The notes beneath the pieces were generated by a model. It worked only from the letters and a program-made list of their open reading frames with translations. It was not told the origin of the DNA and ran no database searches. Both the position numbers and the translations under genes were made by a program. A DNA stretch of 21,209 nucleotides from an uncultured Lysobacterales bacterium (GTDB lineage Bacteria; Pseudomonadota; Gammaproteobacteria; Xanthomonadales; Xanthomonadaceae). The stretch spans positions 1-21,209 of the forward strand of contig CAMPJI010000038.1 in NCBI GenBank assembly GCA_946886865.1, in the 5' to 3' direction. Shown here piece after piece: positions 14,379 to 20,725 of the stretch; the first letter of the stretch is position 1; every line of letters begins with the position of its first letter.

Positions 14379-14984
14379 TCAGCGCGGGGGACGCGGCGAC
14401 GCCAGTGCCCGCTCGATCGCGGCCACCAGCTGCGCGTCGTCCGGGACGGTCTTGCTGCCATAGCTGGCGATGAGCCGCCCGTCGCGCCCCACCAGATACT
14501 TGTGGAAGTTCCACTTGGGCGCCTCGCCGGCCGCGCGGGCCAGGCCGCGGTAGAGGCCGGACGCGTCGGCGCCGACGACGTGGGACTTCTCGAACATCGG
14601 GAACTTCACGCCATACGTGAGCGTGCAGAACTCGCGGATGTCGGTCTCGTCCTCGAATTCCTGCTCCTTGAAATCGCCGGACGGGAAGCCGAGCACCGCG
14701 AACCCGCGGTCCTTGTACGTCGCGTGCAACGCCTCGAGCCCTTCGAACTGCGGGGTGAAGCCGCATTTGCTGGCGGTGTTGACCACCAGCACCACCTGGC
14801 CGCCGTATTCGGCCTGGAGGTCCACCGGGGTTTTGCCGGCCAGGGGTCGGAACACGTGCCCGGAGAGCAGCCCCTGCGCGGCGAAGGCAGCGGCCGACGC
14901 CACCAGAACCGCGCACGCCAGTGCGAAGCGCCCGAGGGGGCGGGCCGGCCGGGAGGTCTGGAAACACCGCTGGATGAGGGGCAT
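14379..14984 (-). CDS. Glutathione peroxidase-family thiol peroxidase, exported
   Basis: 201 residues from ATG 14984, chosen because it gives an N-terminal signal: basic start, hydrophobic 20-36, AFAA cleavage region near 36, and GGAG ten bases upstream. The GPx fold begins at about 40. The peroxidatic cysteine is C74 in NTASKCGFTPQF. The usual NQF glutamine site reads GDF (D104) in GFPSGDFKEQE. A second cysteine, C120, lies in REFCTLTYGVKFPMF, and W158-N159 in KWNFHKYLVGRDG complete the tetrad region. It reduces hydroperoxides, probably with a periplasmic thiol partner and not glutathione, which is inference from the export signal. The gene leads a minus-strand series ahead of the FKBP genes and is divergent from the ABC operon. 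A perfect palindrome ACTCCGGAGT contains its ribosome site. Confidence 0.9.
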   Translation of the reverse strand: MPLIQRCFQTSRPARPLGRFALACAVLVASAAAFAAQGLLSGHVFRPLAGKTPVDLQAEYGGQVVLVVNTASKCGFTPQFEGLEALHATYKDRGFAVLGFPSGDFKEQEFEDETDIREFCTLTYGVKFPMFEKSHVVGADASGLYRGLARAAGEAPKWNFHKYLVGRDGRLIASYGSKTVPDDAQLVAAIERALASPRPPR

Positions 14985-14990
14985 GCGCGG

Positions 14991-15000
14991 ACTCCGGAGT
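14991..15000. repeat. Palindrome over the ribosome site of the peroxidase gene
   Basis: ACTCCGGAGT is a perfect 10-bp palindrome whose GGAG is the ribosome site for the gene starting at 14984. Likely coincidental, but it could reduce access of the ribosome in a dimeric or folded RNA. Confidence 0.25.
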
Positions 15001-15052
15001 AGGCGGCGGGCCAGTATGACTTCAGTTGGGGTGCCCCGGAGACGCCGACCCG

Positions 15053-15080
15053 TTGACATGGGGGAAACTGGTGTTATAGT
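15053..15080 (+). promoter_or_regulatory. Strong sigma70-type promoter of the GntR/ABC operon
   Basis: TTGACA (perfect -35, 15053-15058), a 16-base spacer, then TATAGT (five of six for -10, 15075-15080). It is the best promoter-like sequence in the window. Predicted start is near 15087, about 34 bases before the ATG at 15121. The -10 box lies inside the operator dyad at 15070-15093, so repressor binding would block RNA polymerase. Confidence 0.8.
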
Positions 15081-15093
15081 CACCTACAACACC
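15070..15093. promoter_or_regulatory. YtrA-type GntR operator overlapping the -10 box
   Basis: A 24-bp inverted repeat: GGTGTT and AACACC as outer arms, TAG and CTA as inner arms, with 9 of 10 arm positions pairing. The layout GT..TA...TA..AC is the pattern described for YtrA-subfamily GntR repressors. A gene for just such a repressor is second in the operon (15468-15842), so autorepression is expected. Confidence 0.75.
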
Positions 15094-15120
15094 GGTCTAC
15101 CAACGAGCAGGACGGACCCC

Positions 15121-15465
15121 ATGAACCGCAAGCTGCAGAACACGATCTCCGCCCTCATGACCAGCGGCGCCCTGCTGGTCCTGGGGCTGGTGGCGTCCAG
15201 CCAGGCGATGCCGATGATGGCCAGCCCGGGTGACGCCTACGGCGCGGCCCCGATGGACGCGGCCCTGAACCGGGCCGGCGAACTGAACGCGCTCGCCGGC
15301 CCGGCAGGACTGACCGAACTGGCCACCGCCGCCGCGCTTGCCGCAGCGCTGGAACCCGCCACCGACGATTCGGATGCAGGTACACGCACCGAGCGCTCGT
15401 CGCGTCCGACGGCCCGCCGCCAGGCGTTGGCCATGCCCTATTTCTCCTTCGCACCCCGGGGTTGA
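15121..15465 (+). CDS. Small secreted or membrane-anchored protein of unknown family, first gene of the GntR/ABC operon
   Basis: 114 residues. I do not recognise a family. A basic start and hydrophobic stretch (10-27) end at SSQA, a likely signal-peptidase site before M30, although an uncleaved anchor is possible. The mature part is alanine-rich (40-80), then acidic-to-basic (81-101, with DDSD and then RSSRPTARR), and ends MPYFSFAPRG. The ribosome site is AGGA about eight bases upstream. It is the first gene after the regulated promoter, and the GntR gene starts two bases after its stop. A role as substrate, sensor or partner of the transporter is a guess. Codon use and GC look like the neighbours, so it is probably a real gene. 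Confidence 0.75.
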   Translation: MNRKLQNTISALMTSGALLVLGLVASSQAMPMMASPGDAYGAAPMDAALNRAGELNALAGPAGLTELATAAALAAALEPATDDSDAGTRTERSSRPTARRQALAMPYFSFAPRG

Positions 15466-15467
15466 CC

Positions 15468-15842
15468 ATGACCGCCATCCAGTGGAGCGACGGCGCTCCC
15501 ATCTACCGCCAGCTGAAGGAGCGCGTCGTCGCGATGATGCTCGACGGCGTGCTCAAGCCCGGCGACGCCCTGCCTTCTGTCCGGCAGGTGGCCGCCGAGT
15601 ACCAGCTGAATCCCATCACCGTCTCGCGCGCCTACCAGGAGTTGGCGGACGAGGCCCTTGTCGAAAAACGTAGGGGACTGGGCATGTACGTGACCGAAGA
15701 AGCCGCAAGGAAGCTGCTGGTGAACGAGCGCGAGCGCTTCCTCACCGAGGAGTGGCCGCTCGTGCTGGAGCGCATCCTCCGCCTTGGGCTGGACATGGAC
15801 GAGCTGATGAAAGCCGCCCCCGCCACGGGAGGTGCACGATGA
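15468..15842 (+). CDS. GntR-family transcriptional regulator, YtrA subfamily
   Basis: 124 residues. An N-terminal GntR winged helix covers about 10-75 (PIYRQLKERVVAMMLDG, then LPSVRQVAAEYQLNPITVSR at 36-55 and YQELADEALVEKRRGLGMYV). A short helical tail of about 50 residues serves dimerisation, too short for a ligand-binding domain, which defines the YtrA type. The ATG at 15468 is two bases after the preceding stop; a TTG at 15462 would overlap it and is less likely. Its stop overlaps the ATPase start as ATGA. Repressors of this type usually control the ABC genes beside them, and a matching operator lies at 15070-15093. The inducing signal is not visible; in relatives it is cell-envelope stress or antimicrobial peptides. 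Confidence 0.93.
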   Translation: MTAIQWSDGAPIYRQLKERVVAMMLDGVLKPGDALPSVRQVAAEYQLNPITVSRAYQELADEALVEKRRGLGMYVTEEAARKLLVNERERFLTEEWPLVLERILRLGLDMDELMKAAPATGGAR

Positions 15843-16729
15843 ACGCCGTCCTCGACACCGCGACCACCACTGCCCCGGTCGTCAGCGCCCGCCGCCTCCG
15901 CAAGCAGTACAAGAACAAGCTCGCGCTGGCCGACACCGCGTTCGAAATCCCGGCCGGCCGCATCGTCGGGCTGATCGGCCCCAACGGCGCCGGCAAGACC
16001 ACCGCGCTCAAGGCCATCCTCGGGTTGATCCCGTTCGACGGCGAGCTGAGCGTCCTGGGCCGCGACCCGCGCACCGAGCGCGACGAGCTGATGCGTGATG
16101 TCTGCTTCATCGCCGACGTCGCCGTGCTGCCGCGCTGGATGAAGGTCCGCGAGGCCATCGAGTTCGTCGCCGGCGTGCACCCGCGCTTCGATCGTGCCCG
16201 CTGCGAGCGCTTCCTCGCCGGCACCCAACTCAAGCCCGGCATGCGGGTGCGCGAGATGTCCAAGGGCATGATCGTGCAGCTGCACCTGGCGCTGGTCATG
16301 GCGATCGACGCCCGCCTGCTGGTGCTCGACGAGCCCACGCTCGGCCTGGACATCCTGTACCGCAAGCAGTTCTACCAGCGCCTGCTGGAGGACTACTTCG
16401 ACGAACAGAAGACCATCCTGGTCACGACCCACCAGGTCGAGGAGATCGAACACATCCTCACCGACGTGATGTTCATCCAGGACGGCAAGATCGTGCTCGA
16501 CACCGAGATGGACACGCTGGGCGAGCGCTTCACCGAAGTGCTGGTCAACGCCGACCACCTCGAGGCCGCCCGCGCACTCAAGCCGCTGGACGAGCGCGCC
16601 CTGCCCTTCGGCAAGACGGTGATGCTCTTCGACGGCGTGCCCGCCTCCCAACTGGCCACGCTGGGCGAGATCCGCACGCCCGGGCTGGCCGACCTGTTCG
16701 TCGCCACCATGAAGGGGACCTACGCATGA
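15839..16729 (+). CDS. ABC transporter ATP-binding protein (YtrB-like)
   Basis: 296 residues from ATG 15839, with GGGAGGTG just upstream and ATGA overlap with the repressor gene. Walker A is GPNGAGKT (47-54, K53). Walker B is LLVLDEPTLGLD (160-171, D164, E165). The H-loop histidine is H198 in TTHQVEE. Two motifs deviate: the signature reads MSKGM (140-144) instead of LSGGQ, and the Q-loop region reads FIADVAVLPRW (90-100) with no glutamine where one normally stands. Substitution of these in the YtrB-like group may be typical of the group. It powers the ABC-2 permease encoded next; the ATPase is cytoplasmic and membrane associated. The C-terminal part (about 225-296) is a divergent extension found in this group. 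Confidence 0.95.
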   Translation: MNAVLDTATTTAPVVSARRLRKQYKNKLALADTAFEIPAGRIVGLIGPNGAGKTTALKAILGLIPFDGELSVLGRDPRTERDELMRDVCFIADVAVLPRWMKVREAIEFVAGVHPRFDRARCERFLAGTQLKPGMRVREMSKGMIVQLHLALVMAIDARLLVLDEPTLGLDILYRKQFYQRLLEDYFDEQKTILVTTHQVEEIEHILTDVMFIQDGKIVLDTEMDTLGERFTEVLVNADHLEAARALKPLDERALPFGKTVMLFDGVPASQLATLGEIRTPGLADLFVATMKGTYA

Positions 16730-17784
16730 ACGCCCTCGACACCCGCATCGACGGTGGCAGCCCGGCCGCGCCACGCGCGGTGGCGCACGCCACCCACCCG
16801 ACGCACACTTTCAAACTGCTGCTCAAGCGCGAGTTCTGGGAACACAAGGGCGGCTTCCTCTGGGCGCCGCTGGTCGCCGGCGGCATCTCGCTGCTGCTGA
16901 CGCTCATGGCGATCGTGGTCGGGCTGATCGCCGCCCGCCGCGCCATCGCCGACGGCGACATGGAAATCGACGGCGTGCAGGTCAACGGCCTGGACATCGG
17001 CCAGCTGACCAGTCGCATGAGCGCACAGGACATGGCCGAGATGGCGCAGGGCCTGGACCTGACGCTGCTGCTGAGCTCCTCGTGGCCCTTCATCGTCCTG
17101 GGCTTCGTGGTGTTCTTCTACTGCCTCGGTGCGTTGTACGACGAGCGCAAGGACCGCAGCGTGCTGTTCTGGAAGTCGCTTCCGATCTCCGACACGCAGA
17201 CGGTCCTGTCGAAGGTCGCCAGTGCCGCCGTGGTCGCCCCGATCATCGCCATCGGTGCGTCGATCGTGACCATGATCGTCTTCATGCTGATGATCAGCAC
17301 GGTCGTCCTGATGCACGGCGGCAACCCCGTGGAGCTGCTCTGGGGCCCGGCCAACCCGCTGACGCTGATCGGTGGCCACATCGCCTGGATTCCGGTGTAC
17401 GCCCTGTGGGCCCTGCCGACCATTGGCTGGCTGCTGCTCTGCTCGGCCTGGGCGCGCAGCAAGCCCTTCCTCTGGGCCATCATGGTCCCGCTGTTTGCCG
17501 GCATCTTCGTCAGCTGGTTCGACCTGATGGAGCTGTTCAACCTCGACAGCTCGTGGTTCTGGGCCAACGCGGTGGGTCGCCTGCTGCTGGGCACCTTCCC
17601 CCTGGTTGATGCGGCCTACCGCGACGGGTTCGACGGCAATGGCATCGAGAACATCTCGCACGAGCTCTCTGCGGCCAGCCAGCTTCAGACCCTGGCCATG
17701 CCCGAGTTGTGGATCGGCGCGGTCGTCGGCGCGGCCATGATCTTCGGCGCGATCCGGCTGCGCCGCTGGCGCGACGAAGGCTGA
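16726..17784 (+). CDS. ABC-2 type transporter permease
   Basis: 352 residues, ATGA overlap with the ATPase gene. A hydrophilic N-terminus of 28 residues precedes about six membrane segments (roughly 47-70, 115-138, 165-195, 220-241, 248-265, 327-345). A large loop lies between the first two (71-114), and the cytoplasmic coupling stretch YDERKDRSVLFWKSLPISD is at 138-156, characteristic of ABC-2 permeases of bacteriocin or antibiotic type. With the ATPase it should form a homodimeric exporter or an envelope-lipid/peptide-handling complex. No substrate can be deduced. Its downstream neighbours are secreted DUF2884 proteins. Confidence 0.93.
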   Translation: MNALDTRIDGGSPAAPRAVAHATHPTHTFKLLLKREFWEHKGGFLWAPLVAGGISLLLTLMAIVVGLIAARRAIADGDMEIDGVQVNGLDIGQLTSRMSAQDMAEMAQGLDLTLLLSSSWPFIVLGFVVFFYCLGALYDERKDRSVLFWKSLPISDTQTVLSKVASAAVVAPIIAIGASIVTMIVFMLMISTVVLMHGGNPVELLWGPANPLTLIGGHIAWIPVYALWALPTIGWLLLCSAWARSKPFLWAIMVPLFAGIFVSWFDLMELFNLDSSWFWANAVGRLLLGTFPLVDAAYRDGFDGNGIENISHELSAASQLQTLAMPELWIGAVVGAAMIFGAIRLRRWRDEG

Positions 17785-17817
17785 TACCCGCCCGCTCCCA
17801 CGGACAAGGACCTGCAC

Positions 17818-18471
17818 ATGACCATCCACAAAGCCGCCCTCGCCCTGTGCCTGCTGTCTCCCTGGGCCGCCCAGGCCGGCGAGCCCGCACCGGCCGGTAT
17901 CAACGCCGAAATCCGGCAGGAAATGAGCGCCGCCCGCAAGGAAGTCCGCGCCGACCTCGACGAGGCGCGACGGGACATGCGCACCGGCAACCTGCGCATC
18001 GACAACGGCCTGCGATTCGGCGACCGCGATGACGCGGCGCCTTCCGACCTGCCCCGTGCGGAAATCACCCCCGAAGGTGACCTGTTGATCGAAGGCCAGG
18101 CCCAGGCCATCGATGCCGGGCAGCGCGCCCAGTTGTTGGCCTACCGCCGCCAGGTGGTGGCCATCGCCCTGGCCGGCATCGACGCCGGGGAGCAGACGGC
18201 CAACGCCGCACTGGACGCGGTGGGCGACAGCTCGTGGATCGGCCTGGTGTTCAGCGCGATGACCGGCCGACTGGAACGCGATGTCGAGCGTACGGTCCAG
18301 CAGAACCTCGGGCCGGCCATGCGGGACATCTGCCGACAACTGCCGACGGTGATGTCCACGCAACAGCAATTGGCGTCCAGCCTTCCGCAGTTCCAGCCAT
18401 ACGCCAACCTCGAGCCTGCCGACATCGAGGAGTGCGAAACCACGATCCGGCATGAACTCGCCACGATCTGA
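17818..18471 (+). CDS. DUF2884 (YggN-like) periplasmic protein
   Basis: 217 residues. Signal peptide with cleavage after AQA (about 20). The DUF2884 core runs from about 75 to 207: LPRAEITPEGDLLIEGQA (78-95), an amphipathic helical middle, then ICRQLPTVMSTQQQLASSLP (171-190) and FQPYANLEPADIEEC. Cysteines C172 and C206 are in positions shared with the next gene and may form a disulphide. Function of the family is unknown. AAGGA lies upstream of the ATG at 17818, 33 bases after the permease stop. It is a paralogue of the downstream lipoprotein, and both follow the ABC genes, so a periplasmic accessory role is inferred. Confidence 0.88.
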   Translation: MTIHKAALALCLLSPWAAQAGEPAPAGINAEIRQEMSAARKEVRADLDEARRDMRTGNLRIDNGLRFGDRDDAAPSDLPRAEITPEGDLLIEGQAQAIDAGQRAQLLAYRRQVVAIALAGIDAGEQTANAALDAVGDSSWIGLVFSAMTGRLERDVERTVQQNLGPAMRDICRQLPTVMSTQQQLASSLPQFQPYANLEPADIEECETTIRHELATI

Positions 18472-18483
18472 TCCGAGGCCCCA

Positions 18484-19314
18484 ATGAACAACACCCGCCG
18501 ACTCGCCCTCGTTGCCTGCCTCGCCGTCGCCCCGGCCCTGGCTGCCTGCAGCACCGACTCCACGCCCGCGTCCAGCAAGGACACTGCGGCAGCCGCCGAC
18601 GAGCCCCGCACCGCGCTGGGTCGCACCGTCGCCAATGCGCTCGAGGAGGCCCGCCAGGAAATGGCGACCGAGAACATCAGCGTCAGCGGCGACATGGACA
18701 TCCAGGTGGGTGACACCCACATCAACCGCGACCAGCCGCGCGATGCCGACGGCAATCCGCTGCCCAAGGCCGAGATCAGCCCGCAGGGCGACCTGCTGAT
18801 CGACGGCAAGACGGTTGCCGTCACGCCGGAGCAGCGGACGATGCTGCTCGACTACCGCGGCCACATCGTGGACGTGATCGGCACCGGCATGACGCTGGGC
18901 GCCAAGGGCGCGGACCTGGGGATGGAAGCGGCCGGCGGTGCGATCAAGAGCATCTTCACCGGCGAGATGGACGCGTTCGAGCAGCGTATCGAAGCGCAGG
19001 CGGCCGCCATCGAGACCGAGGCGCTCAAGATCTGCGACCGGCTCCCGGCCATGCTGGCCAGCCAGCAGGCGCTGGCGGCGTCGCTGCCGGAGTTCCGCCC
19101 CTACGCGACGATGACCGAACAGGATGTCGACGACTGCGGGAACGACTCGGGCAACCGCACCGTGAAGCAGGAAGCCGTGCGCGAAACCATCCGCGAAGAA
19201 ATCCGCGACACGATCCGTGGTGCGACAGGCGCCGCAAACGAGCGCTCGCAGGCGGATGACGCAGGGTCCGAAAAGTTGTCCGCCGCCGAGGAAGCCGAGG
19301 CCGCCGGCCGCTGA
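18484..19314 (+). CDS. DUF2884 (YggN-like) lipoprotein with charged C-terminal tail
   Basis: 276 residues. Lipoprotein signal ending LAAC, lipidated C22, no Asp at +2, so outer-membrane localisation is expected. The DUF2884 core is about 45-220: LPKAEISPQGDLLIDGKT (93-110), then ICDRLPAMLASQQALAASLP (183-202), FRPYATMTEQDVDDC. C184 and C218 match the two cysteines of the preceding gene. A tail of about 55 residues (222-276) is unique to this copy, with an alternating charged repeat (RETIREEIRDTIRG, 233-246) and then acidic-alanine sequence. It begins 12 bases after the preceding gene and ends 13 bases from the convergent fumC stop. It closes the operon; role unknown. Confidence 0.88.
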   Translation: MNNTRRLALVACLAVAPALAACSTDSTPASSKDTAAAADEPRTALGRTVANALEEARQEMATENISVSGDMDIQVGDTHINRDQPRDADGNPLPKAEISPQGDLLIDGKTVAVTPEQRTMLLDYRGHIVDVIGTGMTLGAKGADLGMEAAGGAIKSIFTGEMDAFEQRIEAQAAAIETEALKICDRLPAMLASQQALAASLPEFRPYATMTEQDVDDCGNDSGNRTVKQEAVRETIREEIRDTIRGATGAANERSQADDAGSEKLSAAEEAEAAGR

Positions 19315-19327
19315 GCCCGGTTGCCCC

Positions 19328-20725
19328 TCAACCCGCGCCGGACTGGATCCCGCCCCGCGTCAGCGCCGCGGGGTCCAGCAGCTTTTCCAGCGTGCGCCGA
19401 TCCAGCCCGCTCTCTTCCAGCGCGACGTCCAGCACGGGGCGCTGCTCGCGATACGCGCGCTTCGCAATCGCCGCGGCCTTTTCGTAGCCGATCACCGGGT
19501 TCAACGCCGTCACCAGGATCGGATTGCGCGCGAGCGCATCATCCAGCCGGTCGCGGCGCGCCTTCATGCCGCCTATCGCGCTGTCGGCCAACAGGCGCGC
19601 ACTGGCGGCCATCAGGCCGATCGAATCCAGCAGGTTGTCGGCCACCAGCGGCAGCATGACGTTGAGCTGGAAGTTGCCGCTCTGGCCTGCCACGGTGATT
19701 GCGACGTGGTGGCCCATCACCTGCGCGCAGGCCATGGCCACCGCTTCGGGCACCACCGGGTTCACCTTGCCCGGCATGATCGAGCTGCCCGGCTGCAACG
19801 CCGGCAACTCCACCTCGCCCAGTCCGGCCAACGGCCCGGAGTTCATCCAGCGCAGGTCGTTGGCGATCTTCATCAGGGCCACCGCCAGCGCGTTGAGCTG
19901 GCCCGACAGTTCGACGGCGTCGTCCTGGCTGGCAATCCCCTCGAACAGGTTGGCGGCCGATGCGAAGCGCGCGCCCGAGCGGCGCGACAGCGCCCGCACC
20001 ACGGCCTTGGCGAACCGCGGGTCGGCGTTGATCCCGGTGCCGATGGCCGTACCGCCGATGGGCAGCCGCTTCAGCCGCCCCAGTGCGTCCCCGATTCGTG
20101 CCTCGGCCGAGGTCAGTTGAGCCGACCAGGTCCGCAACTCCTGGCCCAGCGTCAACGGCATCGCGTCCATCAGGTGCGTGCGGCCGGTCTTGACCACCTT
20201 GTCGAGCGACTTAGCCTTCCGATCGATGGTCCGGCGCAGGTGGCGCAAGGCCGGCTGCAGGTCTTCAGCGACGGCCAGCACGGCGCTCACGCGGATCGTC
20301 GTGGGGATGACGTCGTTGGAGCTCTGGCCGAGGTTGACGTGGTCGTTGGGGTGCACGCGCCGCCGGCTCGTGGACGCTAGCGTCGCGACCACCTCGTTGG
20401 CGTTCATGTTGCTCGACGTCCCCGACCCCGTCTGGAAGACATCGACGGGAAACTGGCCGTCATGCCCGCCGCCGGCGACGGCCTCGGCCGCCCTGATGAT
20501 GGCGGCGGCGGTCGCGTCGGGCAGCAGGCCGAGGCTGGCGTTGGCCTCGGCGGATGCCGCCTTGACCAGCCCCAGCGCCCGGATGAAGCCGCGGCGCATC
20601 GGCCGGCCGGACATCGGGAAGTTCTCGACGGCTCGCTGGGTCTGCGCGCCCCACAGCGCGTCGGCGGGGACGCGCAGTTCGCCCATGCTGTCGTGCTCGA
20701 TACGGGTTGCGGACGTGTCTGCCAT
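19328..20725 (-). CDS. fumC: Fumarate hydratase, class II
   Basis: Reversibly hydrates fumarate to L-malate in the TCA cycle. 465 residues, iron-independent class II type. The start ATG 20725 has AGGAG seven bases before it and gives a normal N-terminus (IEHDSMGELRVPADALWGAQ); upstream in-frame extension to 20809 lacks similarity. Active-site regions are GSGTSSNMNANEV (100-112), the catalytic histidine H184 in TGRTHLMDAMP, and the signature GSSIMPGKVNP (313-323) with S314 and S315, the catalytic loop. Homologous lyases (aspartase, argininosuccinate lyase) are excluded by the fumarase-type N- and C-termini. Convergent with the DUF2884 lipoprotein gene and divergent from purB. Confidence 0.96.
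   Translation of the reverse strand: MADTSATRIEHDSMGELRVPADALWGAQTQRAVENFPMSGRPMRRGFIRALGLVKAASAEANASLGLLPDATAAAIIRAAEAVAGGGHDGQFPVDVFQTGSGTSSNMNANEVVATLASTSRRRVHPNDHVNLGQSSNDVIPTTIRVSAVLAVAEDLQPALRHLRRTIDRKAKSLDKVVKTGRTHLMDAMPLTLGQELRTWSAQLTSAEARIGDALGRLKRLPIGGTAIGTGINADPRFAKAVVRALSRRSGARFASAANLFEGIASQDDAVELSGQLNALAVALMKIANDLRWMNSGPLAGLGEVELPALQPGSSIMPGKVNPVVPEAVAMACAQVMGHHVAITVAGQSGNFQLNVMLPLVADNLLDSIGLMAASARLLADSAIGGMKARRDRLDDALARNPILVTALNPVIGYEKAAAIAKRAYREQRPVLDVALEESGLDRRTLEKLLDPAALTRGGIQSGAG

What the first reader, a model, noticed from the sequence alone, without database searches (positions are those of the whole stretch)
15053..19314. Six-gene YtrA-controlled operon joining an ABC exporter to two secreted DUF2884 proteins and an unknown secreted protein
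Seen: a strong promoter, a small secreted protein gene, GntR/YtrA repressor, ATPase, permease and two DUF2884 genes, all on the plus strand with gaps of 2 to 33 bases or ATGA overlaps. Known: YtrA-type operons usually consist of a repressor and ABC genes and answer envelope stress. Inference: the DUF2884 pair and the small protein form a periplasmic part of the same machine, giving a poorly understood protein family a plausible context.
Basis: partly seen in the sequence, partly recalled or inferred. Interest (0 to 1): 0.72.

Follow-up and report, generated by a model that had tools for sequence, protein, structure and literature searches.

The report
Stress exporter operon with uncharacterised small protein
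A bacterial export-pump operon with its own repressor begins, in the relatives examined, with a tiny apparently exported protein of unknown function that varies almost everywhere except for one short motif near its end; the pump's link to DUF2884 proteins was already in print, but no description of this small partner was found.

Summary
The six-gene operon is real and as described: promoter 15053-15080, genes 15121-19314, gaps of 2, 33 and 12 bases and two ATGA overlaps. The -10 box lies inside an operator, GGTG-N16-CACC, the motif cited for Xanthomonas citri YtrA. The operator occurs in 184 of 198 family genomes, once in 175. The DUF2884/ABC/GntR link is already in print (PMC11237479, passage), there with a Toastrack gene that the window lacks. 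DUF2884 is not generally ABC-linked: of 42 genomes, 31 have operon copies, 19 a separate copy. The apparently new part is gene 1. A small ORF with a hydrophobic N-terminus precedes ytrA in 100 of 100 family loci where ytrA was read. Its middle is hypervariable; a C-terminal module, R-x-x-L-A-M-P-[YF]-F-S-F, is conserved as peptide (core motif in 131 of 135 unique proteins). Best reading: an autorepressed ABC-2 exporter with periplasmic partners, gene 1 being a periplasmic arm or sensor of the core. A nascent-chain arrest role is possible but less likely. In some genomes a second operator precedes an efflux adaptor gene.

The parts
15053..15080 (+). sigma-70-type promoter TTGACA-16-TATAGT
   Evidence: 11 of 12 matches, the only promoter-like site in 14900-19500; a TTGAC or TTGCA-type hexamer at this place in most relatives
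15070..15093 (+). operator GGTGTTATAGTCACCTACAACACC (GGTG-N16-CACC), overlapping the -10 box
   Evidence: inverted repeat (arms 15062-15079 / 15084-15101); one match in the window, 0.01 expected; 184 of 198 family genomes, reversed control 0
15121..15465 (+). gene 1: small protein, 114 aa; N-terminal hydrophobic segment, variable linker, conserved C-terminal module
   Evidence: no Pfam or NCBIfam family for the window protein
15415..15450 (+). codons of the conserved module RRQALAMPYFSF of gene 1
   Evidence: (131 proteins with the motif): P 131, S 130, last F 123, R at -5 109; synonymous codons vary (69 loci)
15451..15467 (+). tail of gene 1 (APRG-stop) whose last codons carry a Shine-Dalgarno-like stretch for ytrA
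   Evidence: CGGGGTTGA, CGGAGCTGA, AGGAGCTGA or AAGGAATAA at this place in many relatives; the reading as ribosome-binding site is inference
15468..15842 (+). ytrA: YtrA-type GntR regulator, 124 aa
   Evidence: PF00392 55 bits; one search matches 3tqn over 4-115 and 2du9/2ek5 over 10-101; one copy per genome in 27 of 27
15839..16729 (+). ABC ATPase, 296 aa
   Evidence: PF00005 70.5 bits; best model PmtA 136.3 bits (cut-off 350)
16726..17784 (+). ABC-2 type permease, 352 aa
17818..18471 (+). DUF2884-like protein, Sec-type N-terminus, 217 aa
   Evidence: 24.9 bits (cut-off 30.6); 36% identical to the next gene; model
18484..19314 (+). DUF2884 lipoprotein, 276 aa
   Evidence: 49.8 bits (cut-off 30.6); LAAC lipobox read by eye

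Best explanation
This is a single autorepressed envelope-stress operon. YtrA binds the GGTG-N16-CACC operator over the -10 box and shuts off its own operon until an unknown envelope signal releases it. The operon then makes an ABC-2 exporter (PmtCD/NosFY-like), two DUF2884 proteins in the periplasm (one soluble, one a lipoprotein), and gene 1. Gene 1 is a membrane-inserted or membrane-tethered small protein whose basic and aromatic C-terminal module (R-x-x-L-A-M-P-Y-F-S-F), on a flexible linker, works in the periplasm as a docking or sensing arm of the core repressor-transporter unit. Shown here: anatomy, operator, conservation, usually one operator per genome, the constant small gene-ytrA-ATPase-permease core, and peptide-level conservation of the module. 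Inferred: repression, the inducer, export direction and substrate, topology, and what the module touches.
For: Operator overlaps the promoter and is present in 184 of 198 family genomes, once in 175. One YtrA match per genome at E 1e-20 or better in 27 of 27. Small gene between operator and ytrA in 100 of 100 family loci with ytrA (86 with the strict motif, 14 variant); in the 89 of these taken by the script the N-terminus is hydrophobic in all, in the other 11 it was read by eye. In 22 of 22 genomes the only matches better than E 2e-4 to the small-protein profile lie at the operator (in 10 of the 22 only 150 of the first-look candidates were scored). Module conserved as peptide with free synonymous codons. 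The permease model ranks NosY and PmtCD chains first. Published: GGTG-N16-CACC for X. citri YtrA (passage of PMC6746942); in the X. campestris hpaR1 mutant XC_2740 rises 13.84-fold, the largest rise in a table limited to genes shared with Clp (PMC6430473); hpaR1 is XC_2736 by the mutant's name 2736nk (PMC4730234), so XC_2740 may belong to the same operon (inference). The gumB HpaR1 site fits the operator at 14 of 18 positions (2 of 20000 shuffles). A second operator precedes HlyD-type adaptor genes in 6 loci, pointing to efflux or stress.
Confidence: 0.5

Rival explanations
1. Gene 1 is a nascent-chain monitor, like SecM, MifM or VemP. The N-terminal segment engages the membrane, the C-terminal module stalls the ribosome next to the ytrA start, and membrane insertion or export relieves the stall, so the envelope's state tunes how much repressor is made.
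For: Hydrophobic N-terminus, hypervariable linker, short conserved C-terminal module just before the stop, first gene of the operon, and a ytrA SD-like stretch inside the last codons. The shortest linker between segment and module is 29 residues, about a ribosome tunnel length (the tunnel figure is recalled).
Against: No clear RNA structure hiding the ytrA start: SD region unpaired 0.376 against 0.408 in shuffles, lower than the shuffle mean in 86 of 148 loci, MFE z -0.10. The tail after the module varies from 4 to 11 residues, so spacing to the ytrA start is not fixed. The motif is unlike known arrest sequences (recalled).
Confidence: 0.15
2. Gene 1 is the exporter's cargo or inducer: a peptide that is carried by the ABC pump or that releases YtrA, as phenol-soluble modulins do with Pmt and PmtR (that analogy is recalled).
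For: The best NCBIfam model of the ATPase is PmtA and the second-best of the regulator is PmtR, both far below cut-off; a PmtCD chain is among the first permease matches; gene 1 is in the same operon.
Against: Gene 1 carries its own Sec-type or membrane-anchor N-terminus, so it would not need this pump; the part expected to vary in a cargo family (the end) is the conserved part.
Confidence: 0.12
3. The DUF2884 pair and gene 1 form one periplasmic complex with the exporter.
For: Same operon in many relatives; the closest permease structures include NosY of the NosDFY complex, in which an ABC-2 exporter works with periplasmic partners (recalled).
Against: Gene 1 persists in loci where no DUF2884 gene was found near (for example L135, L136, L176, L177, L183; a detection limit is possible).
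Confidence: 0.2

Closest known systems
GntR - ABC ATPase - permease - Toastrack - DUF2884 lipoprotein operons (PMC11237479, passage read)
   Same: Same core and the DUF2884 lipoprotein; Toastrack (PF13349) confirmed in one relative's locus (L034)
   Different: The window has no Toastrack gene, has two DUF2884 genes, and begins with the small protein, which the passage does not mention; the paper's supplement was not seen
Xanthomonas HpaR1 / YtrA
   Same: YtrA-type GntR; operator GGTG-N16-CACC as cited in PMC6746942; the gumB site fits the operator
   Different: HpaR1 is described as a global regulator, while the strict operator pattern is found once or twice per family genome. Sequence identity not tested
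Staphylococcal PmtR / PmtABCD
   Different: One ATPase-permease pair, far below the PmtA, PmtC and PmtR cut-offs; periplasmic partners; small protein
E. coli YggN (DUF2884)
   Same: Same Pfam family for the second protein (49.8 bits)
   Different: Model NF007913 (PRK10626) not met, 13 of 279 bits; that this model is YggN's is recalled. The separate copies in relatives are the high-scoring full-length ones
Bacillus subtilis YtrA operon
   Same: YtrA regulator responsive to cell-wall antibiotics (passage of PMC6746942), with ABC genes
   Different: No DUF2884 and no such small protein (recalled)

Membership tests
YtrA subfamily of GntR | N-terminal GntR winged helix | tested here: met
   PF00392 55 bits over cut-off 27
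YtrA subfamily of GntR | short protein with small C-terminal domain, no large ligand domain | tested here: met
   124 aa; matches 3tqn over 4-115 and 2du9/2ek5 over 10-101; 2EK5 is called a C. glutamicum YtrA in PMC6746942
YtrA subfamily of GntR | widely spaced palindromic operator in front of its own ABC operon | tested here: met
   same as GGTG-N16-CACC cited in PMC6746942
YtrA subfamily of GntR | repression released by envelope stress | not testable with these tools
   needs expression data
HpaR1 orthologue | sequence orthology to XC_2736 | not tested
   HpaR1 sequence not in hand; one YtrA match per genome (27 of 27) makes it likely
Pmt exporter | PmtA / PmtC / PmtR model cut-offs | tested here: not met
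   136.3 of 350, 74.9 of 375, 56.6 of 200 bits
Pmt exporter | two ATPase-permease pairs | tested here: not met
   one pair only
ABC-2 type exporter | ABC-2 permease fold | tested here: inconclusive
DUF2884 (PF11101) | Pfam gathering score, second protein | tested here: met
   49.8 over 30.6 bits
DUF2884 (PF11101) | Pfam gathering score, first protein | tested here: not met
   24.9 under 30.6 bits; homologous to the second, and many near relatives carry PF11101
Toastrack-DUF2884-ABC-GntR operon of PMC11237479 | Toastrack gene present | tested here: not met
   no such gene between permease and the end of the operon in the window; present in many relatives
Translation arrest peptide (SecM class) | membrane-targeting N-terminus and short conserved C-terminal segment before a downstream gene | tested here: met
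Translation arrest peptide (SecM class) | mRNA structure masking the downstream start | tested here: not met
   148 loci
Translation arrest peptide (SecM class) | ribosome stalling at the segment | not testable with these tools
   needs toeprinting

The most novel reading that the evidence does not exclude
Gene 1 is a new kind of secretion or membrane-insertion monitor. The module R-x-x-L-A-M-P-[YF]-F-S-F acts on the translating ribosome beside the ytrA start (or on YtrA itself when export fails), so that failure to insert gene 1 into the membrane directly lowers repressor output and switches on the exporter.
Probability: 0.13. Interest if true: 0.8.

Novelty: new variant of a known kind. Interest (0 to 1): 0.5.

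Why it matters
HpaR1/YtrA has broad phenotypes in Xanthomonas, but the passages read here do not describe the operon it heads. This work shows a family-wide, usually single-site operator and a constant small protein in front of the repressor, with one short motif conserved as peptide. That gives a clean handle (one motif, one gene, usually one operator per genome) on how Gram-negative YtrA systems sense the envelope. It also shows that DUF2884 splits into an ABC-linked branch and a separate full-length branch, so function should not be carried from one to the other.

Tried and rejected

Papers: MPYFSF in none; DUF2884 in 4, 3 of them read in passages. Searches on YtrA with Xanthomonas, GntR with ChIP-exo and X. 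citri, YtrA with RND and efflux, arrest peptide terms, hpaR1 with ABC transporter and YtrA with Stenotrophomonas showed no description of the small protein in the titles, abstract starts or passages seen. The library holds open-licence papers only, Zhou 2017 (X. citri YtrA) is not in it, and no supplement was read.

In one search ATPase hits under 60 bits and ytrA hits under 30 were not printed; 5 of 79 loci have no ytrA (L020, L052, L069, L070, L071) and 5 of the 74 with ytrA lack the strict motif (L004, L005, L072, L073, L076). In one search, 10 of 110 loci have no ytrA: 9 are second or alternative sites of two-site genomes and L138 is cut short; L080-L109 are too short to show DUF2884. Not every match was listed by the tool, and only 110 sites were read. 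The script found the small protein in 148 of 189 loci (59 of 79 and 89 of 110) and preferred frames with the motif where there was a choice, which favours the motif count. Pfam and NCBIfam were run on 40 representatives of the small protein, not on all. Of 8 ytrA loci in genomes without the operator, 4 (L200, L205, L206, L207) gave no usable reading.
Full report
WHAT IS THERE. The only promoter-like site in 14900-19500 is TTGACA-16-TATAGT at 15053-15080, 11 of 12 matches with 0.1 expected. Over its -10 box lies an inverted repeat with core GGTGTT-N12-AACACC, found once in the window with 0.01 expected. The operon ends 13 bases before a convergent fumarase-type gene, and a glutathione-peroxidase-type gene lies upstream on the other strand.

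CONSERVATION OF THE OPERON. A scan of genome contigs with an alignment of the first DUF2884 protein gave 79 loci, the best of 107 confirmed. Most show ytrA, ATPase, permease, DUF2884 and, where the contig reaches, fumC on the other strand; 69 of the 74 with ytrA have the strict motif upstream. These loci were chosen by DUF2884, so they cannot test linkage on their own. The operator pattern can: it occurs in 184 of 198 genomes drawn from the family of one relative, once in 175 and twice in 9, reversed control 0. Of 110 loci taken from those matches, 100 have ytrA, each from a different genome. All 100 have a small ORF between operator and ytrA: 86 with the strict motif and 14 with a variant such as AMPYVSM, TLPYVP, AMPFFDY, ALPYFSI or FFSLLPRS. 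For 89 of the 100 a script extracted the protein and the N-terminus is hydrophobic in every one; the other 11 were read by eye. Of the 14 genomes without the operator, 8 have ytrA; 4 of these could be read and have the small ORF with the motif (L201-L204). From that output, L202 and L204 have an operator one base off the pattern and L203 one three bases off; none was recognised for L201.

ACCESSORY GENES. After the permease, relatives carry DUF2884 genes and Toastrack-like GSGD-repeat genes in varying number and order; one representative is PF13349 (L034). The window has two DUF2884 genes and no Toastrack gene. In 42 genomes searched for PF11101, 39 matched: 31 within 8 kb of the operator, 19 elsewhere, 11 with both, 8 only elsewhere, 3 none. 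Copies elsewhere score 102-133 bits over nearly the whole profile, save one of 51 bits; copies in the operon score 21-49 bits per stretch, more when stretches are summed. Of 14 control genomes only E. coli rings.

GENE 1. Across 135 unique proteins the most hydrophobic 17-residue stretch lies near the N-terminus in all (it starts at residue 17 at the latest in the 148 loci), with mean hydropathy 1.6 or more in 134. The middle varies in length and sequence. 131 have the C-terminal motif. In those 131: P in 131, S in 130, Y or F in 131 at the next place and F, Y or V in 131 after it, last F in 123, M in 104, and R five residues before M in 109. Codons at the motif vary among synonyms (69 loci), so conservation is of the peptide. 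By contrast the last codons plus stop read CGGGGTTGA, CGGAGCTGA, AGGAGCTGA or AAGGAATAA in many rows, which looks like the ytrA ribosome-binding site, so the terminal RG, RS or KE residues are probably an RNA constraint (inference). In 22 of 22 genomes the only matches to the small-protein profile better than E 2e-4 lie at the operator. YtrA is 75-100% identical to the window's in the 25 family genomes searched and 59-64% in two from the class sample. In the class sample 8 of 274 genomes have the operator, 3 of them already in the family set. In the other 5, whose kinship is not told, four ytrA operons were read: two have no small ORF, and two have another exported-looking ORF, one of which (L192) also ends in a basic stretch and aromatic residues. 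Gene 1 may thus be an addition typical of Lysobacterales; that is inference from few outside cases.

REGULON. Two-site family genomes (9) were read at their second site: 3 sit before an HlyD-type adaptor followed by an RND-type pump (adaptors by Pfam; pumps by eye), 4 lie 226-301 bases before a cytochrome c pair (Pfam on one, L089; the rest by eye), 2 are unassigned. In the class sample 3 more sit before HlyD-type adaptors; a pump is seen by eye in one (L199), the other two loci end too soon or show a second adaptor. Five genomes in all (three in the family, two in the class sample) carry both an operator-headed ytrA operon and an operator-headed adaptor gene. This suggests, without proof, that some YtrA regulons pair the ABC exporter with an efflux pump.

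PUBLISHED LINKS. The motif GGTG-N16-CACC is cited for an X. citri YtrA-like regulator (passage of PMC6746942; the original was not available). PMC7831014 treats HpaR1 and YtrA together (passage). In PMC6430473, Table 1 (section 5 read), which lists only genes shared with the Clp regulon, XC_2740 rises 13.84-fold in the hpaR1 mutant, the largest rise listed; hpaR1 is XC_2736 by the mutant's name (PMC4730234, passages). That XC_2740 lies in the same operon is inference from numbering. The gumB HpaR1 site in that table fits the operator at 14 of 18 positions; 2 of 20000 shuffles do so. PMC11237479 (passages) already reports GntR, ABC ATPase, permease, Toastrack and a DUF2884 lipoprotein in one operon and suggests a solute-binding role.

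MECHANISM. Best reading: an autorepressed ABC-2 exporter with periplasmic helpers, gene 1 being a periplasmic arm of the core. The core (small gene, ytrA, ATPase, permease) is constant while DUF2884 and Toastrack come and go, which argues that gene 1's partner is in the core. The monitor (arrest peptide) reading fits the anatomy but not the RNA test nor the variable tail. Cargo is possible, but gene 1 seems to have its own export signal.

VERDICT. Observation confirmed. Interpretation partly right: the operon is conserved, the DUF2884 context was already in print and holds for one branch of that family, and the more interesting and apparently undescribed part is gene 1.

Noticed in passing
L118, L119, L121 (family); L191, L194, L199 (class sample): The YtrA-type operator sits directly before HlyD-type adaptor genes (Pfam), with an RND-type pump next in L118, L119, L121 and L199 by eye; five genomes also have an operator-headed ytrA operon.
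   Followed up: partly
L089, L090, L110, L123: Second operator-like sites lie 226-301 bases before a pair of cytochrome c genes in four genomes (Pfam on L089 only).
   Followed up: no
window 15455-15467 and relatives: The terminal residues RG, RS or KE of gene 1 appear to be dictated by the ytrA ribosome-binding site rather than by the protein.
   Followed up: partly
L004, L005, L073, L126: A group of short versions of gene 1 (58-72 aa) in which the motif has become FTLIPRS or FFSLLPRS, running into the ytrA start.
   Followed up: partly
L192: A different exported-looking 104-aa ORF before ytrA ends in a basic stretch and SSLFHF, possibly a distant version of gene 1.
   Followed up: no
L050 (CP060419.1): Several operon and flanking genes are split into partial ORFs, which may be assembly errors or real decay.
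   Followed up: no
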